From Chryseobacterium gleum (GTDB taxonomy: Bacteria > Bacteroidota > Bacteroidia > NS11-12g > UBA955): DNA of 34,150 nt. The position numbers and the translations under genes are program-made. Shown piece after piece: positions 3,788-33,384 of this stretch. Positions within the stretch are counted from its first letter, which is position 1, and each line of letters begins with the position of its first letter. The DNA is taken from assembly GCA_945870885.1 (NCBI GenBank), contig CAMBTR010000006.1:1-34150 (forward strand), written 5' to 3'. The notes under the pieces were generated by a model. It saw only the letters and a program-made list of their open reading frames with translations. It did no database searches and was not told the origin of the DNA.

Positions 3788-6250
3788 GTGACGGAGATTC
3801 AGACCCTTTTTGCGCATGTGTTGGTTCCGGTGCCGGTACCAAAGACCTATACGTATAGGGTTCCTCACGATTGGAACGATTGGATACACCAGGGATTGCG
3901 GGTGGCGGTTCAATTTGGACCTAAGAAGATTTATGCGGGGATTATATTGGAGTTGAGTGATTCGCCGCCGGAGGGATATCAAGCATCGTATATTTTGGAC
4001 GTGTTGGACGATGCGCCCATTGTGAATCACAAGCAGTTGCAGTTTTGGCGTTGGGTGGCAAAATACTACATGTGTTATTTGGGAGAGGTGATGGCAACGG
4101 CTTTGCCGGCCGGGTATCGACTTCAGAGTGAGACGAAGATCGTATTGCATCCCGATGCGGATTTGGAGGCCATAAGTAGGTCGGATGTTGAGGATTTGGA
4201 GTGGCAGATTTTGGAGTTGTTGGGAAAGAAGGATGGGATTTCGTTGGATGATATCCATCAGAAACTGGCCGTAAAAAATGTATTAAAGCATGTTAAGTCG
4301 TTGTATTTAAGGGGTTTGGTTGTGATGGAGGAGGAGTTGAAGGAAAATTATCGACCTAAGTTTGAGGAGTTTATACAGTTGTGTAGCATTTGGGAGGATT
4401 CGGAGTTGGCGAATTTGAGTTTGAATGCATTGGAGCGACGTGCACCGAAGCAGTATGAGGTGATGATGCATATTTTGGGGACGGGAAAGCGGGAGTTAAC
4501 GGTGGAGTCGATTGTGAAGGGTTTTGAGGTCGACAGGACGGTTTTGAAGCAGTTGGAGAAGAAGTTGATGATAGAGGTCGTGAAGCGCCGCCGCGATCAC
4601 CTTCAGGTGATCCGCGGCGGCGCGCAAGAATACCAACTCACCGAATCTCAGTCGCGGGCCCTTGGAATCATCCGTACTGGATTTGAAGAAAAACAGCCGG
4701 CCTTGCTATACGGGGTTACGGGATCGGGCAAAACCCATGTCTATATGGAGTTGGTGAAGGAGACGTTGGCGGCGGGGAAACAGGTGCTTTATTTGTTGCC
4801 AGAGGTTGCACTAACGGAGCATATGGTGGCTCGGATGGGTGCGTTTTTGCCGGTGGAAATTGGCGTTTGGCATCACTTTTATAGTTCTCACGAGAGGACG
4901 GAGTTGTACGATCGGATATTAAAGGATCAAATCCAATTTGTGGTGGGTACCAAAGGGGCAGTTTTTGCTCCTTTTTCTAATTTGGGGTTGATTGTGGTGG
5001 ATGAGGAGCATGAATCAACGTATAAGCAGTTTGATAAAAAGCCATTTTATCACGGTCGGGATTCGGCGTTTCAGTTGGCCAAGTATCATGGAGCCAATGT
5101 TTTGTTGGGTTCGGCCACGCCAAGTTATGAAATGCAGTTTGCCGTGCAGCAGCATCGTATGGTAATTGCCGAAATCACGGAGAAGTACGATGGCGGAAAA
5201 CCAGCTGAGTTGATGTATTTGAATATCGGCGAGTTGAAAAAAACGGGTCAGATGAATTCGTTGTTTTCCGAGCCGGTGAGGATGGCCATTCAGAAGGCGA
5301 TGGATGTGAAGCAGAAGGTGGTGGTGTATCACAATCGAAAGGGGTATGTGCCTTACATTGAGTGTGGGGATTGTGGGTTGACAACGCAGTGCAAGCATTG
5401 CGATATTTCGATGACCTATTATAAGAGTTCGGACAATCAGCGATGCAGTTATTGTGGGTTTCAGCAGCCGGTACCATCGAAATGTGTGGCCTGTGGTTCT
5501 CAGGATTTGAAGTTGAAGGGGACGGGCACGGAGAAGTTGGCCGAGGAATTGGGTCAGCTGTTTCCCAAGGCGAGGGTGGCGCGGTTTGACCAGCAGAGCA
5601 TGCGGAAGCGGGATGATTTTCAGAAGATTTTGACGGCGTTTGAGCGGGGTGATATTGACATTTTGGTTGGGACTCAGTTATTGTCGAAGGGGATTGATAT
5701 TGAGAATATCGGCTTGGTTGTGGTGCCGGATGCGGATATGTTGTTGCACATTCCTGATTTCAGGAGTCATGAACGGGCATTTCAGCAATTGCAGCAATTG
5801 AGTGGTAGGATAGGTCGCCGCGCGGAGCGCGGCGTGATGATGTTGCAGACATATCAACCGGAACATGAAGTACTGAAATCCATCAAAGCCGATGATTACC
5901 AAGGGTTGATGCAAGTGGAAATGGAGCAACGGGAAGCCTTCGGCTATCCGCCTTACACAAAGTTGATTAAGGTGGATGTGAAGCACATAGATGCACAAGT
6001 GGCGACCGAGGCCAGCCGTTGGCTGGCCGACCAATTGCGAAAGCAATTGGGGAACCTGGTGCTGGGGCCCCAGGTTCCGTCGGTCGCCCGCATAAAAAAC
6101 CGATTCATCCAGCAAATTGTCATCAAGGTCCCCCGAGAAACCGCCCAACTGAACGCTGCAAAATTCCTGTTGCAACAAGTTCGTGAAGCGGCCTTAGCGC
6201 ACAACACTTGGCGGTCGGTTCGCATCGACATTATCATCGATCCCAATTAA
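3788..6250 (+). CDS. priA: primosomal protein N' (replication restart helicase PriA)
   Basis: ALLYGVTGSGKTHVYMEL Walker A, VVDEEHE, LLGSATPSYE, Zn-binding CGDCGLTTQCKHCD...CSYCG...CVACGS, GTGTEKLAEEL, VLGPQVPSVARIKNRF C-terminus. GTG start. Confidence 0.96.
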   Translation: MTEIQTLFAHVLVPVPVPKTYTYRVPHDWNDWIHQGLRVAVQFGPKKIYAGIILELSDSPPEGYQASYILDVLDDAPIVNHKQLQFWRWVAKYYMCYLGEVMATALPAGYRLQSETKIVLHPDADLEAISRSDVEDLEWQILELLGKKDGISLDDIHQKLAVKNVLKHVKSLYLRGLVVMEEELKENYRPKFEEFIQLCSIWEDSELANLSLNALERRAPKQYEVMMHILGTGKRELTVESIVKGFEVDRTVLKQLEKKLMIEVVKRRRDHLQVIRGGAQEYQLTESQSRALGIIRTGFEEKQPALLYGVTGSGKTHVYMELVKETLAAGKQVLYLLPEVALTEHMVARMGAFLPVEIGVWHHFYSSHERTELYDRILKDQIQFVVGTKGAVFAPFSNLGLIVVDEEHESTYKQFDKKPFYHGRDSAFQLAKYHGANVLLGSATPSYEMQFAVQQHRMVIAEITEKYDGGKPAELMYLNIGELKKTGQMNSLFSEPVRMAIQKAMDVKQKVVVYHNRKGYVPYIECGDCGLTTQCKHCDISMTYYKSSDNQRCSYCGFQQPVPSKCVACGSQDLKLKGTGTEKLAEELGQLFPKARVARFDQQSMRKRDDFQKILTAFERGDIDILVGTQLLSKGIDIENIGLVVVPDADMLLHIPDFRSHERAFQQLQQLSGRIGRRAERGVMMLQTYQPEHEVLKSIKADDYQGLMQVEMEQREAFGYPPYTKLIKVDVKHIDAQVATEASRWLADQLRKQLGNLVLGPQVPSVARIKNRFIQQIVIKVPRETAQLNAAKFLLQQVREAALAHNTWRSVRIDIIIDPN
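4585..4623 (+). repeat. Intragenic palindrome A in priA: 17-bp stem with one bulged C, TTCA loop
   Basis: GCGCCGCCGCGATCACC (4585-4601) / TTCA / GGTGATCCGCGGCGGCGC (4606-4623); arms are reverse complements apart from one extra C. Confidence 0.95.
5816..5834 (+). repeat. Intragenic palindrome B in priA: 8-bp perfect stem, GGA loop
   Basis: CGCCGCGC (5816-5823) GGA GCGCGGCG (5827-5834), inside the GRIGRRAERGV coding segment. Confidence 0.9.
6001..6088 (+). repeat. Intragenic four-way-junction palindrome cluster C in priA
   Basis: Outer stem GGCGACCGA (6001-6009) / TCGGTCGCC (6080-6088) encloses GGCCAGCC-GTT-GGCTGGCC (6010-6028), CCAATTGC-GAAA-GCAATTGG (6031-6050) and GGAACCTGG-N10-CCAGGTTCC (6051-6078); all arms are perfect reverse complements. 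Confidence 0.95.
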
Positions 6251-13733: not shown

Positions 13734-16700
13734 ATGAATCGCTTTCAAAGAAATACACTGCTTCTGATTTTAGGCGCCATGTTGGTTGCCGTTGGACAGG
13801 TATTTATGATTCGCGAACAGAATTTGGGCGCTGAGAAAGGCCTGATGAACTTGTCGAACCGCATCGAGGAGTCTATGATTAATGCGCAAGCGTTGATTTT
13901 ACAAGTTGATGATTCTATCGATAAGAAAGAGCAACTGTTGGTCAAATCCACGCATTTGGATTGGGCGGGTTATGAGCGACTTTCTCAGACTTTGCAGACC
14001 CAAGGCGTTGATTTTTTTGTGTATGAATTTGGGCAGCCTGTATTTTGGTCGACCCAGAATTTTCAGATCTCCCCAAATTTTGAAAAACCCATCGAGTTGC
14101 AAAAGCAGGGAAATATGTTTGTGGCAGTTTATCACAGGCAACGAGATGGGAAATCCTTTGCCTATGTGCTTCCGTTGATAGAGGCCAAGGAGATTTCGTA
14201 TACCCAGAGTAGTGTTTTTCAGAATTCGAATGTGGTGGAATATTCCATAAGCAGAAATCCGGTTGAGAATTCTACGCCAGTAATAGTTCCAGATATGGAA
14301 CTATTCTATTTGGTGGTTTCCAATTATCAGCATCCTTATTGGTTTGATATTCTGTTTTTATTGGGTGCTTTGATGATTAGTGCGGCGGTGTTCGGAATCA
14401 CAAAGTCGAGCAAGTTTCATTTGTTGGCGGTGGGTGGTTTATTCGCAACCTGGCTTGGCGTGTATTGGCTGTTTTCACATGGATATACACTCGAAACACT
14501 GCGCTCAACACCCTTATTTTCTCATGAACTGTTCTTTGCTTCCCAGAGCGGTGGGTCGCTTGGAGAATTGATATTTATTACGGTCTTGGGCTTGTTTGTG
14601 GTCAGCAGTTTGGTGCGATGGCTTGAGCAATGGATTCAGAAATCAGGCCAACCCTTGGCTGGTTTTGTTTTAAGTAATCTGGCGATGCAGGCGAGTTTGT
14701 GGATGTTGGTTTGGCTGTTGTTGAATGGTGTGAACTTGGTCCATTTAGGTCGGATCAATCTAGATTTTCAACAATTTCACCGGCTCACATTATTTTCATT
14801 TATTGCCGTTGCTACGTTGGCCGTGCAATGGGTTGCGTTCTACCGCTTAAATGGTTTTGCCTGGAGCGTTTTGCAGGTACAGTCTACATGGATTGTTCGA
14901 TTGATTTCTGTGGCTCAGGCCATGCCGCCGTTGGTCTTTGTTTACATCACACCAGATTTAACAGATATTTTCCCTTATTGGATGGGTTTCATTGCTGCTT
15001 GGATTGGATTTGAGTGGTGGATGAAGGACCGAAAAGATTGGATGCGCGTGGTGCTTCGTGTAGTTTTTGCGGGGATTTTAATTAGTAGTTTGTTTGCTAA
15101 GGAATCCGCCATCAAAGAAAAAAGAACGAGGCGCTATTTGGCCGAAAATCTCTTGCAAGGGACTGATATCGAAACAGCTGAACGCCTGAAAAAAACGGAA
15201 TCGATGTTGCTAGTTGACAAAGGCATCGTGGACTATTATACCTGTACCGATGAAACCAAAGCCGAGTTCGAAAAGCGATTGAGAGAGCTCTATTTTGGTC
15301 CTTATTTGGCCGATTTCGAGGTCAATTTTTTGGATTTCAATTCGTTGGGTAAATCGTACCGACAAGAAAATTCCTACGATTATCCGGCAATAAGTCAGTT
15401 GGTTAGGGGCGAAGATTGCGTTCCGGTAACCACCAATTTCGTAAAGGTTAATAATTACAAACTCAAAGGCAGTTTTATCGGTCGTTTTGATGTCAGCTCC
15501 GCAGTGGGCTATCACGGCGTTTTCTTTGTGATCTTATCCCCTCGATTGTCGTCCATGGAAGGCCGATTGAGTGATTTATTCAATCGGAATGTGTTGGAGC
15601 CTTTGTACGCCGACAATCAATACAGTTTTGCCATTTACAATAACAATCGATTGAATTATTCTTATGGATCGGTAGATTATCCGTTGGACAATCGCTGGCA
15701 TGGGAAGTACAATGATTCAATGGCGGCCAATGACGGTGGTGGCAAGGGTTTCTTGTTGGCCGAGGGCGTAAGTCATTTTGTGCTTACGGATGGCTTAAAT
15801 AATACGGTGGTGTTGTCTCGAAGTCAGATCGACTTTATTGGTTCGATTACGGGTTTTACGGTGCTTGGACTCGGAGGAATTTTGCTGGTACTGCTTTATT
15901 ATTTTGTGCTGTGGCTTCGGCAGCACATCATCGTAATGGGCGATATTACGGGCAAAAAGTTAAAGTTGCTGAAGAATTTGCGTAGCAGGATGCCGATGGG
16001 AAATCAGGGAGAATTGTTCATCGCCAATCGTTTGCAGCTTTATGTGACGTGGATGGTGTTTGCGACGTTTTTGGTGGTGCTGTTTGTAACGGTGAATTAT
16101 TTCGTAAGGAATTATTCTGAGACGCAGAAAGACGGTTTGAGGCAGAAGGCGAACGAAATCGCATCGAAGTTGAGCAGTAAAGTAAACATTGATGCGGTGT
16201 ACGACAAATATCAAACAGGGCTGGTGTATGATTTGGCGGAGTATTACAATACGGATATCAATTTGTATCGCGCGGATGGGACTTTGTTAGTATCGACCAA
16301 TGATCGTTTGATTGAAGAAAGCGTTCGCGGTCGGTTGATGAATCCGTCTGTGTATCGCAAAATGTCGAATTTGGGTTCGTCTACCTCGCTCATCAATGAG
16401 AGTTTAGGCGATTTGGACTATATCTCTTCGTATACAGCATTGTTAAACAAGGATTTGAAGGTGAAGGGGTATTTGAATTTGCCGTATTTCTCGAATCGTA
16501 AGGATTTGTATCGCGACATTTCTGAGTATGCGGTTACGATTATCAATTTGTTTGCTTTGGTTTTTGCGATCATGATTGTGATTGCATATTTGGTGGCCCA
16601 GCGCATTGCCTTGCCATTGAATTTGATTCGCAAGCAGTTGGCATCGATTAAGATTGGGGAGAGGAATCAGCCTTTGGATTGGGACAAGAACGATGAGATT

Positions 16701-17456: not shown

Positions 17457-18437
17457 TTATTCGGGCCGGTATTTGAGGGCCAAATCTATTTGTGCGATGA
17501 GTTTTTTGAGGCCGGCGCGTTGCATGGCTGATTTCTTGAGTTGGGATTTGATTCGCGCTGGCTCAGTCAAGGCTTCTTTCCATTGCGAATTGTTCCAGCT
17601 GATCATTTCACGGGGTTCAAATCGAGGCTCTTGATTGGGTTGGGAGAATTTGTTCCAAGGGCATACATCCTGACAAATATCGCAGCCATAGGCCCACTGG
17701 CCTGTATTTGTGACGAGCGATTCGTCCTGAGTGGTAGTTGCCAAATCAACGCTGGGCCATGTTTTATCCTCGATGGTGAGGTAGGAAATACATCGATTGG
17801 AATCTATCACTTGGGGTTGGACGATGGCCTGTGTTGGACAAGCATCTATACAAGCAGTACATTCACCGCAGTGGTCGGTTTGTTGTTGGTCGGGCTCAAG
17901 TTCCAGGTTGCAAATAATCTCCGCCAAAAAGAAAAAACTACCCACGCCCTTTCTCAGAAGGAGGCTATTTTTCCCAATCCATCCAAGTCCCGCTCGCTCA
18001 GCCCACTGTCGTTCCATTACCGGTGCACTATCTACAAATGCCCTGCCTTCGAAATCTGGGATCCGGGCTTGAATTTCCCCCATCAAAACAAACAACTTCT
18101 CTTTGATGACGTGGTGATAATCATCGCCCCAAGCATATCTTGCGATTTTGGGTGCGCTGATGTCTACATCCGTTTTTAGTTGTTTTGGGAAGTAGTTGTA
18201 GGCAAAGCAAATGACCGTTTTTGCACCTTCTACGAGCAACGATGGGTTGAGTCGCTTCTGGAAATGATTTTCCATGTAAGCCATCTTTCCATGAAATCCT
18301 TTTTCTAGCCAATCTGTAAGTTGTGACTCGGTTTCGTGCAGTTTCTCCGCGCGCGCAAATCCACTGGCCAAAAAACCATGTTTTTCAGCCAGGGCCGATA
18401 TGAATTCCTTTTGGTCTAAAGTGTTTTGCACTGCCAC
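17457..18437 (-). CDS. queG: Epoxyqueuosine reductase
   Basis: CGECTACIDACPTQAI and CDICQDVCPWNKF 4Fe-4S motifs, ERAGLGWIGKNSLLL; GTG start. Confidence 0.95.
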   Translation of the reverse strand: MAVQNTLDQKEFISALAEKHGFLASGFARAEKLHETESQLTDWLEKGFHGKMAYMENHFQKRLNPSLLVEGAKTVICFAYNYFPKQLKTDVDISAPKIARYAWGDDYHHVIKEKLFVLMGEIQARIPDFEGRAFVDSAPVMERQWAERAGLGWIGKNSLLLRKGVGSFFFLAEIICNLELEPDQQQTDHCGECTACIDACPTQAIVQPQVIDSNRCISYLTIEDKTWPSVDLATTTQDESLVTNTGQWAYGCDICQDVCPWNKFSQPNQEPRFEPREMISWNNSQWKEALTEPARIKSQLKKSAMQRAGLKKLIAQIDLALKYRPE

Positions 18438-23634: not shown

Positions 23635-26604
23635 TTATTTTGTTTCTTCTGCGTAGCGCGGATCGGTTTGGTATGGGATTTTTTTCATCCGACTGACGTC
23701 GATATTAAAAACGCCAAAGTCTTCGGTGATTTGGCCCCAGAGTCTGTAGATGCCTCTTCCGTGGAAGGGATATGCTTGCACGGTGGGCGGGAAGTGTATG
23801 CTATCAAAATAATTTCCTTCTGCATCTAGCCAAGTGCCAAAATTCATCTCTTTGCCGCCTACGGTTCTGGTGGGTTTTACGGTGACGAGGTAGCCTTCCA
23901 TAATTACGAATTTCTTTAACATATTGGCGAAGTGTTTTCCCCGGATTTTGGATAGGTGGGGCAGGGTTTCATCGTGTGGAAAGGGCGCGCCTTGCATCAA
24001 ATGGAAAGGGTTGCAGAGAGAAAATCCCAGAAGATTCCGTTCGTCGTGTGCAATTTCTAGCCAAGAATCTTCTAGGCTTGGCAGTTGGTATTCTTTGGGC
24101 GCTTCTAGGAAAAGTTTTTGGGTTTGGGCGACGGGTTTTTTGTTGTTTCCGTAGAGGGCGTGGGCTTCCCACATGAGGGCTTTTCTGCTTTTTTTCCAGC
24201 ACCTACAGGCGCCAATTTGGATGAGGATTTTGAGTTGTTCTAGGCCGGGTTCAACGCGTTGTTTGAATTCGCTGAGGTTTGTAAATAGGCCATCGGCGTT
24301 GCGGGCTTGCAAAAGGCGTTGTATGCAACTCTGCTCCATGCTATCGATGAGGCCAAGTCCTAGCCAAAGCGTTTTTTCTTGGATTCGGGTGAGGGCTTCG
24401 CTGTGATTGATGCATGGAGCTTGGATGTTGGCTCCGCTCTTTCTTGCTGCGTGCACGTAGAATTCTGTTCGATAGAAGCCTCCGAAGTTGTTGATTACGG
24501 CGGTATAGAATTCCAAGGGGTAGTAGGCTTTGAGATAGAGGCTTTGGTAACTTTCTACTGCGTAACTGGCGCTATGTCCTTTGGCGAAGCTATAGCCGGC
24601 GAAACTTTCGATTTGATGCCAAACCTCGGCGATGAGCTCGGGTTTATGTCCTTTTTGTGCGGCCGATTCGAAGAATTTATCTTGCACTTTTTGAAACTCC
24701 TCTCTGCTGCGAAATTTTCCACTCATGCCACGTCGTAGCACATCGCTTTCGCCCAATCCAAGGCCGGCGAAGTGGTGGGCGACTTTAATCACGTCTTCTT
24801 GGTAGACCATGATACCATAGGTTTCGGGCATCAGGTCCCAAAGGACGGGGTGAGCTTCTTTTCGTTTTTCGGGCTGTATATGTCGTTCAATGAACGTGCG
24901 CATCATTCCGCTCCGGGCTACGCCCGGGCGGATGACGCTGCTGGCAGCGACCAATGTTAGGTAGTCGTTGCATTTGAGTTTTCTCAGTAGCTGTCGCATC
25001 GCCGGACTTTCAACGTAAAAGCACCCCGTGGTATGTCCGCTTTCGATCAATCTCCGGATGATGGGATCGTCCTTAAACGCTTGAATTTGGTGAATGTCGA
25101 TGTCGATTCCGCGGTTTTGCTTAACGTAGATAATGGCATCTTTGATGTGTCCAAGTCCGCGTTGGGATAGGATATCGAACTTGGCGATGCCGAGGTCTTC
25201 GGCTTCGAGCATGCTAAACTGTACCACGGGAAATCCTTTGGGTGGCAGGAAGGTGGCGCTATAGTGGTGAATGTGTATTTCGGGGATGAGGATGCCGCCC
25301 ACGTGGATACTGAGGTGGTTGGGGAGGTTGTGGATGCGATGGGCGTGTTTGAGTAGGGTTGCGTTTTTCTCGGTGGAGTGTTTGTTGAGTAGCGCATCGA
25401 TTTCGGCTTTGGGCAGGCCAAATACTTTACCGAGTTCGCGAATAACGGCATTGCTTTGAAAGGTGCTATAGGTAGCCAGGAGTGCAGCGCCATGGTCTTT
25501 GTATTTGTTGAGGATGTAGGCGGTAACGTGGTCTCTGTCTTGCCACGAAAAGTCGAGGTCGAAGTCGGGCGGACTGCTCCGATGCGGGTTGATAAATCGT
25601 TCGAAGTAGAGGTCGAGGTGTATGGGATCCACATCCGTAATTCTAAGGCAGTAGGCAACCACGGAGTTAGCGCCGGAGCCACGGCCGACGTAGAAGTAGT
25701 TGTTTTCTCTAGCGAATCTACAGATGTCCCAATTGATAAGGAAGTAGGGGGTAAATCCTAGTTCGTAGATCATTTGCATTTCCTTTTCCAGTCGTTGTGT
25801 GGTTTGGAAGGTATAGTTGGGGTATCGGTAGTGGAGGCCTTGGGTGGCAAGTTCTCTCAGCATTCGGAAGTCTTGGTTTAGGTTTCCGGAGAAGGTTTTT
25901 TTATTTTGAGGGGTATTCCATTGGAGGTCCCAGGCGCAGCCTTCGCAGAAGGCCTGCGCCTGGGAGATGAGGGAAGGGGTTGCGGCAAATTTTGAAAAAA
26001 TTTGCCGCAGGGGCGCCCATTTCTGCCACGGCGCAGCCGTGGCAGAAATGGGCAACTTCGTTACCAAACAATTGTGATCAATGCACCGCAATAATTTGTG
26101 CGTCTCAAAATCAATCTCGTCCCGAAATGTCACCGTGTGCCAAGCAATCATCGGCAAGGAAAAATTCCGATTCTTCGCCAGTCGCAATTGAGGCAGCACC
26201 TCGGCATGGATTGCGATTGCGTTCCCTGGTCCTTCTTTTTTGTAGGTATAAACCACCTTGACCGACAAAAACGTGGGTGGATAGGTAGGGAAGGGTTTGT
26301 GGTTCATCAGGTGATCCGATAAAAAAGCGTTGATTTCGGCAAAGCTGCTCTGCGAGGTGCTTATTAGAATATATAGCGGTTCATCCCCATTGCGAATGTC
26401 GACCCCCACCAAAGGCATAATGTGTTTTGTGTCTCTGGCAGCCCTTAAAAAATTACTCACCCCCGTTACCGTGTTGATGTCGGCCAATAATACCGGTACA
26501 CGAAACCCCATAGAAATGGCCTCGGATTCGCAGCGTTGCACGATCTCTTCCGGCGAAATCAACCCGTAACGCATGCTGAAATGAGAGTGGAAGTGGAAAA
26601 TCAT
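23635..26604 (-). CDS. DNA polymerase III alpha-type (DnaE-family, short 989-aa accessory form)
   Basis: PHP N-terminus (MIFHFHSHFSMRYGLISPEE), YFLINWDICRFARENNYFYVGRGSGANSVVAYCLRITDVDPIHLDLYFERFINPHRSSPPDFDLDF, GIMVYQEDVIKVAHHFAGLGLGESDVLRRGMSGK, GYSFAKGHSASYAVESYQSLYLKAYYPLEFY. Confidence 0.93.
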   Translation of the reverse strand: MIFHFHSHFSMRYGLISPEEIVQRCESEAISMGFRVPVLLADINTVTGVSNFLRAARDTKHIMPLVGVDIRNGDEPLYILISTSQSSFAEINAFLSDHLMNHKPFPTYPPTFLSVKVVYTYKKEGPGNAIAIHAEVLPQLRLAKNRNFSLPMIAWHTVTFRDEIDFETHKLLRCIDHNCLVTKLPISATAAPWQKWAPLRQIFSKFAATPSLISQAQAFCEGCAWDLQWNTPQNKKTFSGNLNQDFRMLRELATQGLHYRYPNYTFQTTQRLEKEMQMIYELGFTPYFLINWDICRFARENNYFYVGRGSGANSVVAYCLRITDVDPIHLDLYFERFINPHRSSPPDFDLDFSWQDRDHVTAYILNKYKDHGAALLATYSTFQSNAVIRELGKVFGLPKAEIDALLNKHSTEKNATLLKHAHRIHNLPNHLSIHVGGILIPEIHIHHYSATFLPPKGFPVVQFSMLEAEDLGIAKFDILSQRGLGHIKDAIIYVKQNRGIDIDIHQIQAFKDDPIIRRLIESGHTTGCFYVESPAMRQLLRKLKCNDYLTLVAASSVIRPGVARSGMMRTFIERHIQPEKRKEAHPVLWDLMPETYGIMVYQEDVIKVAHHFAGLGLGESDVLRRGMSGKFRSREEFQKVQDKFFESAAQKGHKPELIAEVWHQIESFAGYSFAKGHSASYAVESYQSLYLKAYYPLEFYTAVINNFGGFYRTEFYVHAARKSGANIQAPCINHSEALTRIQEKTLWLGLGLIDSMEQSCIQRLLQARNADGLFTNLSEFKQRVEPGLEQLKILIQIGACRCWKKSRKALMWEAHALYGNNKKPVAQTQKLFLEAPKEYQLPSLEDSWLEIAHDERNLLGFSLCNPFHLMQGAPFPHDETLPHLSKIRGKHFANMLKKFVIMEGYLVTVKPTRTVGGKEMNFGTWLDAEGNYFDSIHFPPTVQAYPFHGRGIYRLWGQITEDFGVFNIDVSRMKKIPYQTDPRYAEETK
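24908..24931 (-). repeat. Short interrupted GC-rich palindrome in dnaE
   Basis: CCG-ct-CCGGGC TAC GCCCGG-g-CGG (+ strand), within the IRPGVARSGM coding segment. Confidence 0.7.
25928..25965 (-). repeat. Intragenic palindrome H1 in dnaE: 17-bp stem with one bulge
   Basis: + strand TCCCAGGCGCAGCCTTC (25928-25944) GCA GAAGGCCTGCGCCTGGGA (25948-25965); one extra C. Confidence 0.95.
25981..26009 (-). repeat. Intragenic palindrome H2 in dnaE: 13-bp perfect stem
   Basis: + strand TGCGGCAAATTTT (25981-25993) GAA AAAATTTGCCGCA (25997-26009). Confidence 0.95.
26015..26053 (-). repeat. Intragenic palindrome H3 in dnaE: 18-bp perfect stem
   Basis: + strand GCCCATTTCTGCCACGGC (26015-26032) GCA GCCGTGGCAGAAATGGGC (26036-26053). 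Confidence 0.97.
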
Positions 26605-31146: not shown

Positions 31147-31154
31147 TATTTTTG
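31147..31154 (+). promoter_or_regulatory. Candidate -7 box TATTTTTG for the riboswitch transcript
   Basis: TAnnTTTG match immediately 5' of the cobalamin riboswitch. Confidence 0.4.
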
Positions 31155-31350
31155 TGGTGTTGCTAGGTTCGATTGTGGATGGCTAATTCACATCGATGAA
31201 AAGGGAACTTCGGTGAAAAACCGAGACTGTACCCGCAGCTGTAACTCCAGATCAAACATTGTTTGATTTATATTTTGGGCATCTAACGCCACTGTGTAAC
31301 AACGGGAAGGCGCCCAAGATGGAGAAGTCAGAAGACCTGCCTGATAACAC
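31155..31350 (+). ncRNA. Cobalamin (B12) riboswitch
   Basis: Conserved blocks in order: gaaaaGGGAActtcGGTGAAAaaCCgagaCTGtaCCCGCagCTGTAA, gCCACTGtgtaacaacGGGAAGGCgc, GAAGtCAGaAGACCTGCCTgataac; directly upstream of a BtuB-like receptor. Confidence 0.93.
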
Positions 31351-31392
31351 TATTGCACGCTTTCGGGATAAAGGCGCAGCGAGGAATCGGGC

Positions 31393-33384
31393 GTGCTTTG
31401 CGTTCCCGTATCTTCTCTCACTTTTCTCGTTTTTGTGCCAACGCAATCTATGTTTGCCTTGTGCGCCATATCGCTCCTATCTGTGGTTTCGGAAATTACT
31501 CCGAAGACAGATTCTGTTTCTCGCAAGTTGGAGTTGATAAAGCCTGTAGATACAGTGTTTGTTCATGTACAACGCATCGATTTTGCCACTTTGGGCAGGG
31601 TGGTGAGAGATTATCAGGCGGGGAACGATGATCGTTCGTTGACATCGGCTTTGGGCGGTGCGGGGGTATTTTTTAAGCAATACGGTGTTGCTGGTTCTAG
31701 TACGATTTCTCGTCGTGGCGCCGATGCAAATCAAACTCAGGTGAATTGGAATGGCTTGCCGGTAAATAATGCCATGCTCGGGATGACGGATTTCAATACG
31801 CTGTTGAATTGGGGAAATACGGAAATGTTTCTTGTTGAGGGTGGGAATTCGGCCAGTGTGGGTAGTGGAAGTATGGGCGGGACGCTGTTTTTGAGAAATG
31901 GGGTCGCTTTTGGATCTTCCAAGGCATTTGAACAAAAATCCAAGTTGCTTAGTACCATAGGAAGTTTTGGCGAGCGCAATGTTGCTGCCGATGTTTCTGT
32001 GCACAATCGTAATTTGATGGTTCAGGTTTCGGCTTTGCGATTTGAATCCAATAATGCGTTTCACTTTTCTGATTTAGGGTTAGATATTCCAAGTCGTTTG
32101 ATGGAAAATGCCCATCGGGAGCAGTCGATGCTTCGCTCGGTGATGGCATATAATAAGGGCGCACATTATTTGAAGGCGGTGACGGAATTTGCCACAATGC
32201 AACGACAGTTGGGTTTGGCATTGGGTTCGTTTCAGGCCTTGGGCCGACAAGACGACAATAACATGCGATCGGTGTTGGAATACATTTATCAGCCAAATCG
32301 AGGGTTTTCGGCTACGCATCGACTGGGGTATGTGAAGGATCAAATCAATTATTTTTCATCGCCGAGCGATAATAAAGGCAGTTTGAGCATTGGGAAGACG
32401 GTGCATTTTCAAAGTGAGTTTTATCGGATTTGGGGAATTTGGAAAGCATTTTTGGGGAATGACATACAATTTCAGCAAGCTCATTCTGAGTATTACTTGG
32501 GATGGTCTTCACGGGTATTGCCCGCCTCTTTGATTGGATTGAGTGCATCAAAAGGGAAAACATCTTACGGTTTCAACGGTCGTTATGAATGGCATGAAAA
32601 AGTGCCTACCATGGGATTGTCGTTTGTATATCAAGCATCAAAACAAGGTTCGATCAAAGCCAATGTGCACAGCAGTTTCCGTCGTCCTACGTTGAATGAT
32701 TTATTTTGGGTAACCGGTGGTATGGCGCAGGGATTAAAGCCAGAAAAGGGCAAGGGTGCTGAGGTGGGTTATTTGTTGAAGTGGTTGCCGAATGTGTTGT
32801 GGAAACAAAATCGGGTGGATGAAAATCGATGGGTGGGGCAATCGGAGCTGACGTTTTATTATCGGACAGTGGATCAGCCTATTTTGTGGGTGCCCAAGGG
32901 TACGTATTGGTTTGCTACGAATTTATCGGGTGGCGGTATTTATGTCGGTGGGCAATTGAGTGCTTCGCTAAAATATCAAATGGGAGACAAAGGCTCGGTG
33001 ATACTAAAATCGAATGTGGACAGGGTGAGCAGCAGAGTGAAACAGACACCGGAGTCGATGGCGTATCAACAGATTTTTGTTCCTGATTGGAATGGGAATG
33101 CGTATTTGGGGTTTGAGAATTTGCGCTTTGAGACGGGAATCGGAATGGATTATACGGGACGAAGGTTTATTCAGACAGACAATTTGGAATCGTTAAATCC
33201 TTTTGCGTTGGTGAATCTGCAATTTGGTTTGAGAAAGGTTGTATTGCCTATGGGGATGATGTTGCAGGGGAAGTTAGAGTTGTTGAATGTGTTAAACCAA
33301 GAATATGTGAATATGCCAGGTCGGCCGATGCCGGGAAGGGCTGTCAGAATGACTTTGGTAATTAAATCGAATCAATCAAAATGA
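31393..33384 (+). CDS. btuB: TonB-dependent receptor, BtuB-like vitamin B12 transporter (start uncertain: GTG 31393 or ATG 31450)
   Basis: Plug-domain sequence SLTSALGGAGVFFKQYGVAGSSTISRRGADANQTQVNWNGLPVNNAMLGMTDFNTL and beta-barrel with C-terminal LELLNVLNQEYVNMPGRPMPGRAVRMTLVI; follows a cobalamin riboswitch. Confidence 0.88.
   Translation: MLCVPVSSLTFLVFVPTQSMFALCAISLLSVVSEITPKTDSVSRKLELIKPVDTVFVHVQRIDFATLGRVVRDYQAGNDDRSLTSALGGAGVFFKQYGVAGSSTISRRGADANQTQVNWNGLPVNNAMLGMTDFNTLLNWGNTEMFLVEGGNSASVGSGSMGGTLFLRNGVAFGSSKAFEQKSKLLSTIGSFGERNVAADVSVHNRNLMVQVSALRFESNNAFHFSDLGLDIPSRLMENAHREQSMLRSVMAYNKGAHYLKAVTEFATMQRQLGLALGSFQALGRQDDNNMRSVLEYIYQPNRGFSATHRLGYVKDQINYFSSPSDNKGSLSIGKTVHFQSEFYRIWGIWKAFLGNDIQFQQAHSEYYLGWSSRVLPASLIGLSASKGKTSYGFNGRYEWHEKVPTMGLSFVYQASKQGSIKANVHSSFRRPTLNDLFWVTGGMAQGLKPEKGKGAEVGYLLKWLPNVLWKQNRVDENRWVGQSELTFYYRTVDQPILWVPKGTYWFATNLSGGGIYVGGQLSASLKYQMGDKGSVILKSNVDRVSSRVKQTPESMAYQQIFVPDWNGNAYLGFENLRFETGIGMDYTGRRFIQTDNLESLNPFALVNLQFGLRKVVLPMGMMLQGKLELLNVLNQEYVNMPGRPMPGRAVRMTLVIKSNQSK

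What the first reader, a model, noticed from the sequence alone, without database searches (positions are those of the whole stretch)
6001..6088. Perfect four-way-junction (cloverleaf-like) fold encoded in the priA C-terminus
A 9-bp perfect outer stem (GGCGACCGA/TCGGTCGCC) exactly brackets three perfect hairpins (8 bp with loop GTT, 8 bp with GNRA tetraloop GAAA, 9 bp with 10-nt loop) with only 0-2 unpaired nt between helices. This is an 88-nt multibranch structure made wholly of perfect Watson-Crick pairs, inside codons for QVATEASRWLADQLRKQLGNLVLGPQVPSVARIKNR. The VLGP...ARIKNR residues are normal PriA C-terminal sequence, so the fold arises from codon and residue choice, not a simple insertion. 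As DNA it could extrude a Holliday-junction-like cruciform; as RNA it resembles a structured element.
Basis: partly seen in the sequence, partly recalled or inferred. Interest (0 to 1): 0.8.

Follow-up and report, generated by a model that had tools for sequence, protein, structure and literature searches.

The report
Locked DNA hairpins inside coding genes
The priA gene of this freshwater bacterium really does contain an 88-base stretch that folds into a perfect four-armed structure, and it is the most extreme of a small set of perfect hairpins inside protein genes of this genus whose stems hardly change between species, most likely because DNA copying errors keep repairing one arm from the other rather than because the hairpins have a job.

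Summary
Window 6001-6088, inside priA, folds into four perfect Watson-Crick helices (34 bp, no G-U). Its energy is far beyond 3000 codon-resampled versions, and it is the strongest fold in 434 kb of the genome. It is not an insertion, not repeated and not an Rfam family. Six other species keep it. One of them is only 77% identical over the rest of priA, yet all 25 testable synonymous sites in the stems are unchanged, while unpaired sites vary. More distant congeners lack the fold, apart from one hairpin.
It is not alone. A second priA hairpin, three hairpins in a DnaE-type polymerase gene, and hairpins in glycosyltransferase, aminotransferase, MnmH and rhodanese genes behave similarly. In the DnaE and glycosyltransferase genes the arms change together, with amino-acid replacements. 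One DnaE loop is exactly inverted between sister species. Coding hairpins with arms of 11 bp or more are 4-10 times more frequent than in codon-permuted genes, and many have the C-GNA-G loop known to make extra-stable DNA minihairpins.
Best reading: DNA hairpins nucleated by stable loops, perfected and held perfect by replication template switching. A selected RNA element or a DNA recognition site is not excluded. For the priA fold itself, arm-to-arm copying is inferred, not seen.

The parts
3788..6250 (+). priA (replication restart helicase PriA, 820 aa), host gene of the fold
   Evidence: Pfam PriA_3primeBD, DEAD, Zn_ribbon_PriA, PriA_C; orthologues in relatives
6001..6088 (.). four-way-junction fold; folds equally well as DNA on both strands
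6001..6009 (.). outer stem, 5' arm (pairs with 6080-6088)
6080..6088 (.). outer stem, 3' arm
6010..6028 (.). hairpin H1, 8 bp, loop GTT; the only helix kept whole in L008-L011
6031..6050 (.). hairpin H2, 8 bp, GC-GAAA-GC (GNNA minihairpin loop; GGAA in L007 and L015)
6051..6078 (.). hairpin H3, 9 bp, 10-nt loop
4585..4623 (.). second priA hairpin (17 bp with one bulge, loop TTCA); core identical in L003-L006 and L008-L011, decayed in L007
23635..26604 (-). DnaE-type DNA polymerase III alpha gene (989 aa; a second copy, the longer DnaE is on contig C38) carrying three coding hairpins
26015..26053 (.). DnaE hairpin H1, 18 bp perfect, 3-nt loop
25981..26009 (.). DnaE hairpin H2, 13 bp perfect, 3-nt loop
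25928..25965 (.). DnaE hairpin H3, 17 bp with one bulge; loop inverted (TGC/GCA) between sister species

Best explanation
The priA fold is a cluster of coding DNA palindromes that were perfected, and are kept perfect, by template switching during replication (quasi-palindrome correction). When single-stranded DNA at the fork folds on a stable loop, the polymerase copies one arm from the other. A mutation in either arm is then overwritten, pairing spreads outward, and the arm with fewer protein constraints is rewritten as the reverse complement of the constrained arm. In priA, the three inner hairpins bring the outer arms next to each other, so the outer stem behaves like a short-loop palindrome and is corrected too. 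Shown: the fold, the locking of its synonymous sites, and paired arm changes and a loop inversion in sister elements of the genus. Inferred: that the same process made the priA fold, and that it needs no function.
For: Wobble sites in stems are frozen in six elements in five genes: priA 6001 in L007 25/25 against 59% in the rest of the gene (P 2e-6); priA 4585 in L008-L011 11/11 against 53-56%; DnaE 26/27 (70%); aminotransferase 9/9 (57%); rhodanese 9/9 (68%); MnmH 13/13 (72%). DnaE arms covary: 12 pairs changed on both sides, shuffled mean 4.9, 0/500. The outer arm of DnaE H1 has three unrelated states; where it is extended it pairs, each time as the complement of the more protein-constrained arm. 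Glycosyltransferase orthologues have three different outer stems, all paired, with amino-acid changes in both arms. The DnaE H3 loop is TGC in L060 and GCA in its sister L062, an exact inversion; H1 has GAA and TTC. Arm homogenisation and spacer inversion are the reported signatures of template switching in coding DNA (PMC8604942). Coding hairpins with arms of 11 bp or more: 9 against 2.0 expected (G000), 12 against 1.2 (G009), while 8-9 bp arms are at expectation, as a threshold process predicts. Loops C-GNA-G or complement: 8/23 and 9/28 of coding hairpins against 0/83 and 0/79 in codon-permuted genes, P about 2e-6 each; GNA and GNNA loops make extraordinarily stable DNA minihairpins (PMC4686876). 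No excess of G-U over A-C: 9 against 18.
Against: In the priA fold itself no arm-to-arm copying is caught: carriers have nearly identical stems, and covariation on the wider alignment is weak (further pair types 13 against shuffled 15.6). A G000-G009 comparison of 299 kb found no template-switch-type substitution clusters of three or more mismatches, though only about 20 hairpins with arms of 10 bp or more lay in it. Simple arm homogenisation should not slow wobble-wobble pairs, yet 10/10 such sites are unchanged in L007 (only five pairs, so weak). Why helices cluster (four in 88 nt in priA, three in 126 nt in DnaE) is not explained. Absence of SbcCD does not single out the genus, since the family lacks it too. 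C-GNA-G loops are also common in the genus's intergenic hairpins.
Confidence: 0.5

Rival explanations
1. A selected RNA structure in the priA mRNA, for example one that slows ribosomes, tunes decay or affects transcription; the other coding hairpins would be similar cis elements.
For: Strong RNA fold; frozen synonymous sites with changes mainly in loops; the H2 loop varies only GAAA to GGAA, both GNRA; DnaE pairs covary.
Against: No G-U pair in the fold, and in DnaE stems G-U changes are not more frequent than A-C. The hosts are unrelated genes with hairpins at scattered positions. Covarying pairs often cost amino-acid changes. The fold is absent from priA of half the genus. No Rfam match.
Confidence: 0.24
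2. A DNA recognition site: the folded single strand or extruded cruciform is bound by a protein (for example a hairpin-binding recombinase, phage polymerase or primosome factor), and selection keeps it.
For: Folds equally well as DNA on both strands; C-GNA-G/GNNA loops typical of stable DNA minihairpins are enriched in the genus, in coding and intergenic DNA, and not seen in G024 or E. coli samples.
Against: No shared stem sequence is apparent among the elements inspected and the fold has no second copy; loop sequences vary; no candidate protein was sought.
Confidence: 0.12
3. The priA fold arose once in the ancestor of the window's clade by chance or template switching, and L007 received the same 88-nt segment recently by homologous recombination, so it only looks frozen.
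For: L007 is 97.7% identical over the 88 nt and 77% elsewhere; the priA tree does not resolve L007's position (support 0.38).
Against: The near-identical tract (about 5999-6090) ends at the fold's boundaries; six elements in five genes show the same stem-only conservation in different species pairs, which one transfer cannot explain.
Confidence: 0.09
4. Chance: protein-imposed complementarity plus codon bias.
For: 6 of 9 outer pairs and several H1 pairs are fixed by the amino acids (sequence inspection).
Against: None of 3000 codon-resampled versions comes within 15 kcal/mol; stems are frozen in relatives.
Confidence: 0.03

Closest known systems
Template-switch (quasi-palindrome) arm homogenisation and spacer inversion in yeast coding genes (Abraham and Hazkani-Covo 2021, PMC8604942)
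   Same: Perfect inverted repeats with short spacers inside coding genes, multinucleotide changes that make one arm the complement of the other, exact loop inversions, amino-acid replacements.
   Different: Here a bacterial genus; elements persist over several species with frozen stems; several helices cluster and in priA close into a four-way junction; loops favour C-GNA-G. Recent events were not detected genome-wide.
Template switching creating and maintaining RNA hairpins (Monttinen and Loytynoja 2022, PMC8794818)
   Same: Perfect stems and multi-base compensatory changes explained by copying one arm from the other.
   Different: That work concerns RNA genes with functional stems; here the stems lie in protein genes with no known role.
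Coding palindromes in mitochondrial genes of Nematomorpha (PMC6649704)
   Same: Perfect inverted repeats inside conserved protein-coding sequence, both arms translated.
   Different: Those repeats reach 284 bp and are numerous; here arms are 8-21 bp, about 13-17 per Mb with arms of 11 bp or more, in a bacterium, mostly with 3-4 nt loops.
Rickettsia palindromic elements (cited in PMC6649704)
   Same: Palindromes inside reading frames.
   Different: Those are inserted mobile repeats; the priA fold is neither inserted nor repeated.

Membership tests
Template-switch-maintained coding inverted repeats | perfect inverted repeat with short spacer inside a gene, beyond chance | tested here: met
Template-switch-maintained coding inverted repeats | one arm rewritten as the complement of the other (arm homogenisation) | tested here: inconclusive
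   paired multi-nt changes in the DnaE and glycosyltransferase genes; in the priA fold carriers have nearly identical stems
Template-switch-maintained coding inverted repeats | spacer (loop) inversion | tested here: met
   DnaE H3 TGC/GCA between sisters L060 and L062; not seen in priA
Template-switch-maintained coding inverted repeats | recent reverse-complement mutation clusters on short branches | tested here: not met
   none in 299 kb of G000 against G009 for clusters of 3 or more mismatches; therefore given as the likely mechanism, not as proven membership
Rickettsia-type palindromic element | insertion relative to orthologues, repeated in the genome | tested here: not met
   gap-free protein alignment, single copy
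Known structured RNA (Rfam) or tRNA | covariance-model or ARAGORN match | tested here: not met
Selected cis-acting mRNA structure | compensatory changes with G-U tolerated on the transcribed strand | tested here: inconclusive
   covariation in DnaE but G-U 9 against A-C 18; weak for priA
Selected cis-acting mRNA structure | effect on expression or phenotype when stems are broken | not testable with these tools
   needs bench work
Extra-stable DNA minihairpin (C-GNA-G / GNNA loops) | GNA or GNNA loop closed by G-C pairs | tested here: met
   priA H2 GC-GAAA-GC; many genus hairpins; priA H1 (GTT) and H3 (10 nt) do not have it

The most novel reading that the evidence does not exclude
This genus uses single-stranded DNA hairpins with C-GNA-G or GNNA loops, scattered in coding and intergenic DNA, as structural signals read by a protein, and the priA four-way junction is the most elaborate of these sites; selection on folded DNA, not RNA, freezes the codons.
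Probability: 0.13. Interest if true: 0.82.

Novelty: new variant of a known kind. Interest (0 to 1): 0.55.

Why it matters
If template switching is the cause, these genes show a mutational process freezing synonymous sites and driving paired amino-acid changes over genus-scale time. Synonymous conservation and covariation are normally read as proof of a functional RNA, so this would be a warning case for RNA-structure surveys. It also gives a testable link between DNA minihairpin loops and palindrome evolution. If instead the folds are selected, a class of hidden elements inside bacterial genes awaits a function.

Tried and rejected
Mobile repeat or insertion: rejected. Rfam or tRNA: none. Genome-wide excess of short (8-9 bp) coding hairpins: none. 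Most intergenic long hairpins that were inspected look like ordinary terminators. Genome-wide template-switch clusters between G000 and G009: none found. Loss of SbcCD as the cause: canonical SbcCD is missing from the genus but also from nearly all relatives, so it does not discriminate. Assembly artefact: rejected, because the fold is in independent MAGs from different studies.

Full report
Observation. Window 6001-6088 lies in frame in priA (3788-6250; Pfam PriA domains). The RNA fold is -64.8 kcal/mol with the four-way structure at 81% of the ensemble. DNA folding gives the same structure on both strands. Holding the protein fixed and drawing codons from the usage of the window's genes, none of 3000 sequences passes -49.2. 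In 434 kb of the same genome this is the most extreme 90-nt window, ahead of the intergenic terminators.

Origin in the protein. Orthologues align over the region without gaps, so nothing was inserted. The fold is built partly from forced complementarity: A-T-E and S-V-A codons pair in six of nine outer positions, and Q-L pairs with Q-L in H2. In more distant congeners (L008-L013) only H1, or part of the outer stem, is present. Comparing them with the window, the right arm of H2 (AAATCACTG to AAGCAATTG, Ser to Gln) and the left arm of H3 (GAT CGC to AAC CTG) are the arms whose amino acids changed, towards the complement of the better conserved arm. This is inference from sequence, because the divergence is too great to order the steps.

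Conservation. Seven species carry the fold. L007 (G003) is 77.2% identical to the window over the rest of priA and 97.7% over the 88 nt; its two differences are unpaired (a loop base and base 6079). Of the wobble positions that pair in stems, 25 of 25 are unchanged, against 351 of 596 in the rest of the gene. Over all carriers three variable columns are unpaired and one is paired. A second priA hairpin at 4585-4623 behaves likewise in the other half of the genus: its 13 codons are identical in L008-L011, where about half of codons match elsewhere, but it has decayed in L007. The two elements thus have different species distributions.

The wider class. Scanning coding sequence for perfect hairpins gave expected numbers at 8-9 bp arms and a clear excess at 11 bp and above: 9 against 2.0 in 700 kb of G000 and 12 against 1.2 in 695 kb of G009. 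G013 had 3 against 1.6, G024 2 against 0.8, and E. coli K-12 0 against 0 in 171 kb (earlier runs gave expectations of 0.3-1.7 for G000). The members lie in unrelated genes: a DnaE-type polymerase, glycosyltransferase, aminotransferase, a rhodanese-thioredoxin protein, a large surface protein, with near-perfect ones in MnmH. Their stems are mostly frozen too. G000 and G009 share some of these genes, so their counts are not fully independent.

How the arms change. The DnaE gene carries three hairpins across the genus. H1 keeps the core GCCACGGC-nnn-GCCGTGGC. Outside it the window clade has GCCCATTTCT/AGAAATGGGC, G014 has a paired T-A to C-G change in this, and G003/G005 have CCAGCAAT/ATTGCTGG; five other species have no extension. 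In each extended case the right arm codes the conserved W-x-x-W stretch and the left arm is its complement. Pair counting gives 12 pairs with changes on both sides against 4.9 in shuffles. In the glycosyltransferase, three species have GCG/CGC, GCGT/ACGC and GCCTGTTG/CAACAGGC outside a constant CTGCGGCG/CGCCGCAG core, with amino-acid changes in both arms. The DnaE H3 loop is TGC in L060 and GCA in its well-supported sister L062, and GCA/TGC recurs across the tree. Arm homogenisation and reversible loop inversion in coding inverted repeats are what template switching was reported to do in yeast, with spacer inversions there seen only at arms longer than 9 bp (PMC8604942).

DNA or RNA. The priA fold has no G-U pair. 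In DnaE stems the departures are 9 G-U and 18 A-C, so wobble pairs on the message are not favoured. Coding hairpins of 9 bp or more in the genus have C-GNA-G loops or their complement in 8/23, 9/28 and 4/14 cases, against 0/83, 0/79 and 0/48 in codon-permuted genes; none were seen in G024 or E. coli samples. GNA and GNNA loops with two or more G-C pairs form extraordinarily stable DNA minihairpins (PMC4686876). H2 of the priA fold, GC-GAAA-GC, has a GNNA loop, and its variant in L007 and L015, GGAA, is GNNA too (both are also GNRA, so this point alone does not separate DNA from RNA). Intergenic hairpins of the genus share the C-GNA-G loop, so the bias is not limited to genes.

Mechanism. I take template switching on folded single-stranded DNA as the most likely cause (0.5). 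A hairpin with a stable loop forms at the fork, the polymerase copies one arm from the other, mismatches vanish and pairing spreads. Because a wobble site often pairs with a coding position, the change that protein selection tolerates is mostly the reversion, which freezes synonymous sites. Weak points: the priA fold itself shows no copying event, a G000-G009 scan found no such clusters, wobble-wobble pairs are frozen as well, and clustering of helices is unexplained. A selected RNA (0.24) or DNA site (0.12) remains possible, as does recombination into L007 (0.09).

Controls on the source. Relatives are metagenome-assembled Flavobacteriales/Bacteroidota genomes from several independent projects, including Lake Baikal and other sites that read as freshwater, so assembly error cannot explain the shared fold. 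Canonical SbcCD, which cuts long hairpins in E. coli (from general knowledge), is absent from the genus except for divergent partial matches, but it is also absent from nearly all relatives.

Noticed in passing
window 31148-31358 (+): Cobalamin riboswitch (90.4 bits) upstream of the 663-aa ORF at 31393.
   Followed up: no
L037:1-48 and L045:1-44 (contigs C7 and C15 of the genome): Two contigs begin with the same 20-22 bp perfect palindrome GTTGTGCCCGAAACGGATATAAACGTTTATATCCGTTTCGGGCACAAC: a repeat at assembly breaks, possibly a mobile or terminator-like element.
   Followed up: no
DnaE-type gene, window 23635-26604, about residue 415; L056-L064: Most relatives carry a variable insertion of several tens of residues (starting SYYS...) that the window's closest clade lacks.
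   Followed up: partly
G000:C42:11631-11903; G002:C153:2756-4131: No canonical SbcCD in the genus; a divergent SbcD-like ORF (in G002 next to an SbcC-like ORF) is present instead.
   Followed up: partly
L045:12185-12262 (MnmH gene): Two adjacent coding hairpins (GCGCGGCC-GTA-GGCCGCGC, and AAGCATGA.GGCCGC-GAA-GCGGCC.TCATGCTT), conserved in the window's clade only; a 6-bp remnant of the second in some others.
   Followed up: yes
L242, ORF 17583-18282; L211, ORF 14106-15063: Coding hairpins with 21-bp (G000) and 20-bp (G009) perfect arms, no orthologue in hand; the longest coding palindromes seen.
   Followed up: no
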